The position numbers and the translations under genes were made by a program. DNA of 33,623 nucleotides from Desulfobulbus sp. (GTDB lineage: Bacteria; Desulfobacterota; Desulfobulbia; Desulfobulbales; Desulfobulbaceae): the NCBI GenBank assembly GCA_003978695.1, contig QNYF01000065.1, positions 1 to 33,623 of the forward strand, in the 5' to 3' direction. Below, piece after piece: positions 13,093 to 33,364 of this stretch. A model generated the notes under the pieces. It made no database searches, had not been told where the DNA came from, and saw only the letters and a program-made list of their open reading frames with translations. Numbering within the stretch: the stretch's first letter is position 1; each line of letters starts with the position of its first letter.

Positions 13093-13351
13093 ATAACTAT
13101 TCAGCTGCATCCCATCTCGGAGTCGTGGCTTACCGGCGACAATCAGGCCGCCTCACAGAGGTGTGACACCGCTTCGCTGTTATATTCGTTGGCCTGCTTG
13201 CCACAATATGGGGCACATCTTCTAAGTAACAAAATATCAACGTACTGATTTTTCGTTACTTTTAAAATATATGCCGGGGCACCCGGTTGGGGTGCTGAAC
13301 AGTTACAGACCACACGTTATGCCAAAGTCGGGGTGCTACCTGAATAGCACC
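13093..13351 (+). repeat. MITE-like repeat, copy A (degenerate, with ~76 bp of extra internal sequence)
   Basis: Near identity over most of its length with copy B. Ends ATAACTATTCAG / CTGAATAGCACC; flanks cttgactc / cctggctc agree at 6 of 8 positions. Confidence 0.8.
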
Positions 13352-17823: not shown

Positions 17824-19494
17824 ATGACAATGCGACTGAACAGGGAAGAAATGGCAGCTTTGGAGGTTGGTCAGACCACGATATCACATGGTCTGTCAGC
17901 CAGTATGGTTTTTTTGTTTGTTGGTCTCATTGTAACTGTTCCCCTGGTGCAGCTGTTTCTGGACCGGCACGATGGGGTGCCTGATTTGATTGTCAGGATT
18001 AACCAGATGATTTCTGTTGAGAACGGACAGACCGGGCAGGTATCAGCTTTTCAAACCCTTTGGCGGAGAAATAACCGTCTGCTTGCCCGAATGGGAGATT
18101 TTGAAGAACAACTTGAGAAGTCGAGTTTTCTCCGAAGAATGCTTCTCTCTCCGGGCCAGCAGCTTCTTCTGAAGCTTGGTTATGGCAACGAAAAAGTCTA
18201 TCCGGGAAAAAAAGGTTGGTTGTTTTATCGGCCGGATATGGACTATCTCATAGGGCAGGGGTTTCTTGATTCGTCTACTCTAAAGGAGCGGAGTCAGAGC
18301 GGAAAGATTTGGGAAAAACCGATTGAACCTGATCCGGTTTCAGCGATTCTTGATTTTAACAGGCAGTTGAACCAGCGTGGAATCAAGTTGGTTCTTTTGC
18401 CTACCCCCATTAAAGCTTCGCTGCATCCGGAGTTCTTTGCTGAGAATAGTTCCTGGCATCTTCCCTTGCAAAACAGATCCTGGCAGGATTTTATTGACCG
18501 GATGAAGGAAGAGGGAGTTGATGTTTTTGATGCAGCTCCGGTACTCAAACAGTTTCTTCAGCAAAATGATCAACCTGTATACCTTGCCACAGATACCCAT
18601 TGGCGTCCTGAAGCCATGGAAGAGGTTGCCAGGCGGGTGGCATTATTTCTACGTGGGTACATTTCCACTGATGAAAAATCTATGGACTACAGACGTAAGA
18701 GCCGCCGGGTAACCAATGTGGGTGATATTGCGGCCATGCTCCAACTGACCGGTCCGTCGCGTACAGCTGACACGGAAGAAGTGGAGATTCATCCTGTTGT
18801 GTCCCGCTCTGATGAGCTCTGGCAGCCTGTTACAGAGGCTGAAGTTTTGCTGCTTGGGGATTCTTTTTCAAATATTTATTCTCTATCAGGGATGGGATGG
18901 GGGGAAGGAAGCGGCTTTGGCGAACAGGTCAGTTTTTTTCTTGATCGACCTGTTGATCTGGTATCGCAAAACGATGCGGGTGCCTTTGCCACCCGAGAAA
19001 TGCTGGCAAAAGAAATGGCTCGAGGCAGGGATCGTCTGGCAGGTAAGAAGGTGGTTGTCTGGCAGTTTGCCAGTCGTGAATTATCTTCAGGTAACTGGAA
19101 ACACATTGAAATGGATCTTAAAAAGAAACAGGAAAGCGGTTTTTTTGTACCAGAGCCCGGTGAGAGTCTTCATGTAAAAGCGGTTGTAGCCGCGGTTTCC
19201 CGTTCTCCACAGCCAGGGGCAGTACCCTATAAGGACAATATCATTACTCTACACCTGGTTGATGTCAAAGGTGTGAGTTCAGGAAAAGAATATGGCCAGG
19301 CTCTGGTCTACTGTTGGGGGATGCGGGACAACAAGCTTACCCGGTTTGCCCGTGTCCGGGCAGGCCAGGAAATAGATATTAAACTTGTTGACTGGGACAG
19401 TGTTGCTGAGAAATATTCATCGTACCGTCGCAGTACACTGGATGATGAAATGCTGGAACTTGAACTACCTGTTTGGGGAGAAATCAGACCATGA
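17824..19494 (+). CDS. AlgX/AlgJ-like SGNH-type O-acetyltransferase with C-terminal beta domain
   Basis: N-terminal TM, KKGWLFYRPDM, DTHWRPEAM, LLLGDSFSNIYS; extra ~110-aa C-terminal region. Confidence 0.87.
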   Translation: MTMRLNREEMAALEVGQTTISHGLSASMVFLFVGLIVTVPLVQLFLDRHDGVPDLIVRINQMISVENGQTGQVSAFQTLWRRNNRLLARMGDFEEQLEKSSFLRRMLLSPGQQLLLKLGYGNEKVYPGKKGWLFYRPDMDYLIGQGFLDSSTLKERSQSGKIWEKPIEPDPVSAILDFNRQLNQRGIKLVLLPTPIKASLHPEFFAENSSWHLPLQNRSWQDFIDRMKEEGVDVFDAAPVLKQFLQQNDQPVYLATDTHWRPEAMEEVARRVALFLRGYISTDEKSMDYRRKSRRVTNVGDIAAMLQLTGPSRTADTEEVEIHPVVSRSDELWQPVTEAEVLLLGDSFSNIYSLSGMGWGEGSGFGEQVSFFLDRPVDLVSQNDAGAFATREMLAKEMARGRDRLAGKKVVVWQFASRELSSGNWKHIEMDLKKKQESGFFVPEPGESLHVKAVVAAVSRSPQPGAVPYKDNIITLHLVDVKGVSSGKEYGQALVYCWGMRDNKLTRFARVRAGQEIDIKLVDWDSVAEKYSSYRRSTLDDEMLELELPVWGEIRP

Positions 19495-20513
19495 AAAACG
19501 CTTATATTTTGCTTGTTTTATCCATATTTTTATTAAGTTATGACATCAGCACAGCCACAACCATTAGCGAACAGGTTGCAGGCCTTGCTGATTCGGCAGG
19601 GATAGATGGTGTGGTCGTAGGAAAAGATGGTTGGCTCTTCCTGCAGGAAGAGCTTGTCCATCTAGGGAGCCCGACTTTTTTCGGTAGGGAAATGGCACAG
19701 ATATCCAAGGCTACTAAAGCTGAATTTGCCGATCCTCTGCCCGCCATTGTTGACTTTAATAATCAACTCAAAGAGCTTAATATTGATCTCATTTTTGTTC
19801 CAATTCCTCCTAAGGCATTGATTTATCCCGATAAACTCCCCGCCCAGCTTACTAAAGAAGCAACCGCCCAGTTACAGAAACCTTATGAAGCCCTGTATGC
19901 GCAACTTCGTCAAGAGGGGGTACAGGTCTTGGATCTGATACCATTATACTCTAAGGCTCGTGACACGGAGCAGGTATACTGCAAGACAGATACGCATTAT
20001 TCAGGGCCGGGGTTGTCGTTGTTGGCAAAAAACATTTCGGAATCATTGAAAAAAACAGACTGGTATAAAGCCATGCCGCAGACAAAGTATGTTGTTAATG
20101 CACAACCATTGGAAATTACAGGTGATCTTGCTCAGATGCTTAAGTCAGGTGCCAAGGAATCTCTTGTTCTTGATTTTGTCAGTGATCCTCAAACAGGGAA
20201 GAATATTATTCCAAAGAGTGGTAGTCCGGTCTTGCTGCTTGGCGACAGCCATACACTTGTGTTTTCTGTTGGGGGTGACCTGCACGCAACAGGAGCCGGT
20301 CTTTTTGATCAGTTAAGTGCAGATCTTGGTTTCCCACTTGACCGAATTGGTGTACGCGGCTCAGGCGCAACTCCAAGTCGTATCAAGTTGTATCAACGCA
20401 GTCGTAAAGATCCGGGCATGCTTGCTGCAAAGAAAGTTGTGATCTGGTGTCTGAGCGCCAGAGAGCTTACAGGCAGTGGTGGATGGAGAAAAATTCCTGT
20501 TGCAAAAAAGTAA
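19491..20513 (+). CDS. Second AlgJ/AlgX-like SGNH-type O-acetyltransferase
   Basis: Signal peptide, GKDGWLFLQEEL, KTDTHYSGPG, LLLGDSHTLVFS. ATG 19491 overlaps the upstream stop (ATGA). Confidence 0.87.
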   Translation: MKNAYILLVLSIFLLSYDISTATTISEQVAGLADSAGIDGVVVGKDGWLFLQEELVHLGSPTFFGREMAQISKATKAEFADPLPAIVDFNNQLKELNIDLIFVPIPPKALIYPDKLPAQLTKEATAQLQKPYEALYAQLRQEGVQVLDLIPLYSKARDTEQVYCKTDTHYSGPGLSLLAKNISESLKKTDWYKAMPQTKYVVNAQPLEITGDLAQMLKSGAKESLVLDFVSDPQTGKNIIPKSGSPVLLLGDSHTLVFSVGGDLHATGAGLFDQLSADLGFPLDRIGVRGSGATPSRIKLYQRSRKDPGMLAAKKVVIWCLSARELTGSGGWRKIPVAKK

Positions 20514-20707
20514 CAACGCACTAATGTCGCTTGGTGATGTTGTATTCACTGAGAGTTTTTTGTAAGAATTCAACAGCACCTCATGAGCTGTAGCCTCTGG
20601 CGTTGCCAGGTTTTGATCAAATGGAATATTGATTAGCCAGGAGATTTATCCATCAGGGGGGTGCTGAATCCTGACAAAATCGAGGCAGGGGCTATTTAAG
20701 CCTTGAT

Positions 20708-20891
20708 GTAACTATTTAGCTGCACTCCATCTCGGAGTCGTGGCTTACCTGCGACAATCAGGCCGCCTCACATAGGCGGTGACACCGCTTCGCTGTTATA
20801 GTTCGTTGGTCTGCTTGCCATAATATGGGGCACATCTGAATAGTTACAGACCACACGTATGCTAAAGTCGTGGTGCTACCTGAATAGTTAC
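20708..20891 (+). mobile_element. MITE-like element, copy B (184 bp), with perfect 8-bp target-site duplication
   Basis: TIRs GTAACTATTTAG / CTGAATAGTTAC (11 of 12). GCCTTGAT directly flanks both ends (20700-20707 and 20892-20899). No coding capacity. Confidence 0.9.
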
Positions 20892-20923
20892 GCCTTGATA
20901 AATATTAATTTCAACGGGTAAGG

Positions 20924-33327: not shown

Positions 33328-33364
33328 GTCACGACTCCGAGATGGGGTGCAGCTGAACAGTTAC
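33328..33364 (-). repeat. MITE-like repeat family, copy C (one recognisable end)
   Basis: Reverse complement GTAACTGTTCAGCTGCACCCCATCTCGGAGTCGTG matches the left end of copies A and B; internal sequence diverges beyond. Confidence 0.8.

What the first reader, a model, noticed from the sequence alone, without database searches (positions are those of the whole stretch)
20700..20899. Fresh MITE-like insertion with 12-bp GTAA-type TIRs and a perfect 8-bp target duplication
Seen: GCCTTGAT | GTAACTATTTAG ... CTGAATAGTTAC | GCCTTGAT, a 184-bp element with no ORF and an internal CCGCCT-cacat-AGGCGG hairpin. Its TIR motif CTGAATAGTTAC is repeated inside the right end at 20836-20847. Established knowledge: IS66-family elements typically have GTAA termini and 8-bp duplications, so an IS66-mobilised non-autonomous element is a reasonable guess. 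It sits about 30 bp upstream of the 196-aa gene and may have changed its promoter.
Basis: partly seen in the sequence, partly recalled or inferred. Interest (0 to 1): 0.68.

Follow-up and report, generated by a model that had tools for sequence, protein, structure and literature searches.

The report
IS66-powered miniature jumping DNA element
The 184-base stretch is a real, gene-less jumping DNA element that exists in dozens of copies in this Desulfobulbales bacterium and is most likely moved by the transposase of an IS66-type (ISBst12-group) insertion sequence; it is a new family of a well-known kind, with an unusual third copy of its end sequence kept at a fixed distance inside one end.

Summary
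Window 20708-20891 is a 184-bp ORF-less element with 12-bp terminal repeats (11/12 matching), a third copy of that motif at 20836-20847, and a perfect 8-bp duplication, GCCTTGAT. The same (1.9-Mb, about 75% complete) genome holds about 40 further matches; most full ones have their own 8-bp duplication. A congener has the orthologous spacer without the element. The IS66 guess is supported. Intact 1.7-kb single-ORF IS66 elements of the same bacterial order end in GTAACTATTCAG, identical to the MITE consensus, with 8-bp duplications. The window's genome keeps a remnant of one, 85-91% identical in protein to those. One relative (G112) carries intact IS66 copies and MITEs with identical ends. 'Fresh' is overstated: this copy differs from its consensus at 7 sites, 4 of them private. 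Beyond the first report: the family spans Desulfobulbales, and its inner and outer right-end motifs lie 43-47 bp apart in all 58 elements aligned, even where the sequence between differs. A 17-bp module sits on either arm, as mirror images. Minimal 48- and 53-61-bp derivatives also carry target duplications. It is a new MITE family, a variant of a known kind; the third end motif is the one unusual point.

The parts
20700..20707 (.). left copy of the 8-bp target-site duplication GCCTTGAT
   Evidence: repeated exactly at 20892-20899
20708..20719 (+). left terminal inverted repeat GTAACTATTTAG (family consensus GTAACTRTTCAG)
20708..20891 (+). the 184-bp MITE
   Evidence: 44 matching stretches in own genome; 8-bp duplications on sibling copies
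20733..20749 (+). 17-bp optional module CGGAGTCGTGGCTTACC; in other lineages its reverse complement sits at the mirrored position of the other arm
20757..20810 (+). central palindrome (CAGGCCG ... CGTTGGTCTG in this copy), with compensatory base changes across the family; contains the hairpin CCGCCT-cacat-AGGCGG at 20763-20779
20836..20847 (+). inner (third) copy of the end motif, CTGAATAGTTAC
   Evidence: 43-47 bp from the outer copy in 58 of 58 aligned elements
20848..20879 (+). tail between inner and outer end motif (32 bp here, usually 33)
20880..20891 (+). right (outer) terminal inverted repeat CTGAATAGTTAC
20892..20899 (.). right copy of the target-site duplication GCCTTGAT
13093..13347 (+). 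second, decayed family member in the window, of the 262-bp variant with an extra central segment; right end motif truncated
   Evidence: intact sibling L028:1091-1352 with duplication GAAAAATA
33330..33364 (-). third, truncated family member: left arm only

Best explanation
[quoted passage not shown] It encodes nothing; an IS66-family transposase of the single-ORF ISBst12 group recognises its GTAACTRTTCAG ends and inserts it into AT-rich intergenic DNA with an 8-bp staggered cut, which leaves the duplication. Shown: structure, copy number, duplications, an element-free orthologous site, identity of the ends with intact IS66 elements of the same order, and coexistence of both in one genome. Inferred: that this transposase does the moving. 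The right end carries the motif twice (inner and outer, about 45 bp apart). The outer copy is the one normally used as the boundary; the inner copy is either an extra transposase binding site or a relic of a core element that gained a tail. Shorter versions arise by internal deletion at short direct repeats and keep both outer ends.
For: Own genome: 44 matching stretches, more than a dozen of the first 30 with exact 8-bp duplications, all different. 57 duplication-flanked elements over all loci then held. Element-free site in congener G004: the spacer aligns end to end when the element and one duplication copy are left out (score 230 against 144 with it). Ends: intact IS66 elements L212 (GTAACTATTCAGCG at both ends, duplication ATTGCTTC, 1728 bp), L190/L213, L191 and L186 (one end GTAACC) have exact 8-bp duplications. 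The remnant at G000:C88 has an end GTAACCATTCAGCG, matches the NCBIfam IS66 model (below its whole-protein cut-off, being a fragment), and its protein is 85-91% identical to G112 and G133 IS66. G112 holds both IS66 copies and 151-bp MITEs with identical ends and exact duplications. Outside support: ISDge4, an ISBst12-group IS caught transposing, has ends GTGACTACTCAGCA/GTAACTGCTCAGCA and an 8-bp repeat (PMC12898284). All 28 G000 copies checked are intergenic by a crude ORF test.
Against: No intact IS66 transposase of this group was found in the window's own genome, only a remnant; the assembly is about 75% complete. Congeners G001-G004 have many copies but no close relative of the remnant. Beyond the 12-13-bp ends the element shares nothing with any IS66 checked, so it is not simply an internally deleted IS66. 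No transposition was observed.
Confidence: 0.9

Rival explanations
1. A MITE moved by a different transposase family that also makes 8-bp duplications (for example ISAs1, IS1595 or ISL3), the match to IS66 ends being convergence.
For: No intact IS66 of the right group in the own genome or, at E<=1e-20 to the remnant, in congeners G001-G004.
Against: 12/12 end identity with IS66 elements whose boundaries were set by their own 8-bp duplications; coexistence in G112; no larger element with these ends and another transposase turned up among the loci read. Other transposase families were not searched for in the genome.
Confidence: 0.06
2. A host-serving intergenic repeat (RNA hairpin that alters mRNA stability or termination) rather than a selfish element.
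For: Stable fold (z -2.85); compensatory changes and many G-U pairs in the core palindrome; intergenic location.
Against: Duplications and an element-free site show insertion; no consistent placement relative to gene starts or ends; no Rfam match; most double changes come from a few diverged elements; the tail is not a conserved hairpin (mean z -0.5).
Confidence: 0.04
3. A history compatible with the best explanation: the 184-bp element is a composite, a 140-bp core element (left end to inner motif) that gained a 44-bp tail once, by adjacent insertion or one-ended transposition, and has since moved as a unit; the inner motif is then a relic without function.
For: Left arm and inner right arm form the longer palindrome; a tail-less 125-bp element with exact duplication exists (L127); tail-only 61-bp and 48-bp forms exist.
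Against: The 43-47-bp spacing is kept even where tail and core sequence have been replaced, which a neutral relic would not require.
Confidence: 0.4

Closest known systems
ISBst12 group of the IS66 family (single-ORF IS66; e.g. ISDge4 of Deinococcus geothermalis, PMC12898284)
   Same: GTAACTRYTCAG-type ends and 8-bp target duplication
   Different: those are autonomous elements (1.6-1.7 kb in this order) with a transposase gene; none of those examined here has a third end motif; no shared internal sequence
Bacterial MITEs in general (e.g. MITEPsy1, MITEAba12, MITEPye1)
   Same: short, no ORF, inverted ends matching a known IS, target duplication, mostly intergenic, folds into a stem-loop
   Different: reported partners are other IS families (MITEPsy1 with ISPsy2, 4-nt duplication, PMC3189936; MITEPye1 with IS1182, PMC11578231). 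No IS66-moved MITE was found in the papers searched; a 2024 review of prokaryotic MITEs does not mention IS66 (PMC10969869)
REP/REPIN and similar intergenic palindromes
   Same: short, palindromic, intergenic, many copies
   Different: exact 8-bp duplications and transposon ends shared with an IS family point to ordinary transposition

Membership tests
MITE | short (under about 600 bp), no coding sequence | tested here: met
   184 bp, no ORF of 80 aa or more
MITE | terminal inverted repeats | tested here: met
   12 bp, 11/12; family consensus GTAACTRTTCAG
MITE | target-site duplication on independent copies | tested here: met
   57 exact 8-bp duplications, different sequences
MITE | many copies in the genome | tested here: met
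   44 matching stretches; end motif 257 times in 1.91 Mb, control 0
MITE | element-free orthologous site | tested here: met
   G004 L081; the site itself is diverged, so the single GCCTTGAT is not preserved there
moved by ISBst12-group IS66 | ends identical to an autonomous member | tested here: met
   GTAACTATTCAG in L190, L191, L212, L213
moved by ISBst12-group IS66 | 8-bp target duplication | tested here: met
moved by ISBst12-group IS66 | intact cognate transposase in the same genome | tested here: not met
   only a remnant in G000 (assembly about 75% complete). Met in relative G112
moved by ISBst12-group IS66 | transposition by that transposase | not testable with these tools
   needs an assay
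internal-deletion derivative of IS66 | subterminal sequence shared with the parent IS | tested here: not met
   blastn finds only the 12-13-bp ends and chance-level matches
three-gene IS66 (tnpABC) | GTAAGCG-type ends | tested here: not met
   the IS66 elements of that kind in G009 and G015 end in GTAAGCGC / GTAACCGC; the MITE does not

The most novel reading that the evidence does not exclude
The fixed spacing (43-47 bp) of two directly repeated end motifs at one end only, kept while the sequences between and beside them were replaced, means that the MITE has a functional asymmetric double end: a second transposase site that makes it a better substrate than the parent IS66, which lacks it.
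Probability: 0.3. Interest if true: 0.55.

Novelty: new variant of a known kind. Interest (0 to 1): 0.4.

Why it matters
It gives the poorly studied ISBst12-group IS66 transposases a natural minimal substrate: a 12-bp end seems enough, down to 48-61 bp elements. It also explains a large share of the intergenic repeats (up to hundreds of end motifs per genome) in Desulfobulbales MAGs, which probably break assemblies. The conserved third end motif makes a concrete question testable: why a MITE should keep a double end that its presumed parent lacks.

Tried and rejected
Tail as a conserved hairpin: rejected, mean z -0.5 over distinct tails. Whole-core inversion as the cause of the 17-bp module's two positions: rejected where the central block could be read, since it keeps its orientation. 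MITE as internal deletion of IS66: rejected. Three-gene IS66 as the mover: ends do not match. Plasmid collection: no match. Viral contigs: no exact match to a 17-base internal pattern. Rfam: none. The 17-mer scan of genome contigs also returned unrelated phyla; about 30 chance hits are expected for a 17-mer in 257 Gb on two strands (my arithmetic), so only loci with duplication-flanked elements were counted. The 34-bp pair at G000:C9:167-200 has no convincing duplication, and two 35-bp pairs (C8, C45) proved to be cores of tailed elements, so no claim is made for elements under 48 bp. Promoter change: one weak sigma-70-like match inside the element (20815-20844, 9/12) means little.

Full report
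What is there. Window 20708-20891 is a 184-bp ORF-less element between two copies of GCCTTGAT. Its ends are GTAACTATTTAG and CTGAATAGTTAC, 11 of 12 complementary, with a third copy of the right motif at 20836-20847. The window holds two more relatives: a decayed copy at 13093-13347 and a left-arm fragment at 33330-33364.

Copies. The genome (1.91 Mb in 236 contigs, 74.6% complete) has 44 matching stretches for the 184-bp query, itself included, and the end motif CTGAAYAGTTAC occurs 257 times against 0 for the reversed control. Of the first 30 copies, most full ones are flanked by their own exact 8-bp duplication, each different. Over all loci then held there were 57 such elements, mostly 150-191 bp. 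The duplications are AT-rich in the middle, with purines favoured at position 1. None of 28 G000 copies lies inside a long ORF by a crude test, and none of the gene-end classes dominates.

Insertion, not ancestral sequence. The congener G004 has the orthologous genes (83% protein identity for the LPG_synthase_TM gene that follows the 196-aa gene; 76% DNA identity over the region). Its spacer aligns through the insertion point when the element and one duplication copy are left out (score 230 against 144 with the element). The site itself has diverged, so the single GCCTTGAT is not preserved. The element differs from its G000 consensus at 7 positions, 4 of them private, so it is recent enough to keep an exact duplication but not pristine.

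Who moves it. PF03050 finds one IS66 transposase remnant in G000. Its adjacent end reads GTAACCATTCAGCG, its protein matches the NCBIfam IS66 model, and relatives at 85-91% identity exist in G112 (intact, several copies) and G133. Those and others (L186, L190, L191, L212, L213) are elements of 1.71-1.73 kb whose boundaries are fixed by exact 8-bp duplications and whose ends read GTAACTATTCAG, with GTAACC at one end of L186. In G112, the IS66 copies and 151-bp MITEs with the same ends and exact duplications (ATATAATC, GTTTTATT, CATTATTC) live together. The longer IS66 elements of G009 and G015 (about 2.4 kb, consistent with the three-gene type) end in GTAAGCGC or GTAACCGC and do not match. ISDge4 of Deinococcus geothermalis, an ISBst12-group element observed to transpose, has closely similar ends and an 8-bp repeat (PMC12898284). 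That this transposase moves the MITE is an inference from these facts.

Anatomy across the family. Named loci with duplication-flanked copies come mainly from Desulfobulbaceae and other deltaproteobacterial MAGs, including Candidatus Desulfobulbus rimicarensis. In 58 aligned elements the inner and outer right-end motifs start 43-47 bp apart (45 in 42 of them), also where the tail differs strongly, and G112 elements with replaced interiors show the same layout at 43 bp. The intact IS66 elements examined have no such third motif. The left arm and the inner right arm form a long palindrome with compensatory changes (28 pairs, 93.7% of cells paired, 10 pairs with double changes against 4.2 in shuffles). 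Most double changes come from a few diverged elements, so the number of independent events is small. A 17-bp module (CGGAGTCGCGGCTTACC and variants) accounts for the 153/170-bp size classes and sits on the left arm or, reverse-complemented, on the mirrored place of the right arm, while the central block keeps its orientation where it could be read. Local exchange between the arms of the hairpin is the simplest reading.

Small derivatives. A 53-bp and a 61-bp element in G000 carry exact duplications, and another 61-bp one occurs in a Desulfobulbaceae MAG (L112). Their junctions fall at short direct repeats of the 184-bp form (CAG; TACCTG), as expected for internal deletion. In G112 two identical 48-bp elements lie at different sites, one with an exact and one with a 7-of-8 duplication. 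Movement of such short forms, or recurrent identical deletion after insertion, would both explain this.

Effect on the neighbour gene. The element ends 32 bp before the ATG and leaves the presumed ribosome-binding region intact. One weak promoter-like match inside it is no evidence. The claim of a changed promoter is untested.

Verdict. An ordinary kind of thing (a MITE), correctly spotted and correctly attributed, in a family not described in the papers searched, with one unusual architectural feature.

Noticed in passing
window 13093-13347 and L028:1091-1352: A 262-bp family variant with an extra segment of about 75 bp inserted at the same place before the inner motif; one copy has an exact duplication.
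   Followed up: partly
L163:1459-1710: A different 252-bp element with long inverted ends (GTAACTTCTCAATAAGTGGTG...) and an exact 8-bp duplication GTTATTTC, possibly another IS66-type MITE family.
   Followed up: no
G112 contig starts (C8, C21, C35, C36, C65, C82, C84): The end motif lies at about 115-128 bp from the start of many contigs, as expected if the MITE breaks the assembly.
   Followed up: no
L172:1-141: In G030 a MITE end abuts the start of a single-ORF IS66 transposase gene (477 aa), whose downstream end reads GTAACCGTTCACCAG like the ends of some order-level MITE relatives (L067, L115).
   Followed up: partly
G015:C6:180766-180933: Three end motifs in direct orientation 30 bp apart behind a left end: an expanded array of the right end.
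   Followed up: no
window 17824-20513: Two neighbouring AlgX-type SGNH acetyltransferase genes upstream of the element, probably an exopolysaccharide cluster.
   Followed up: no
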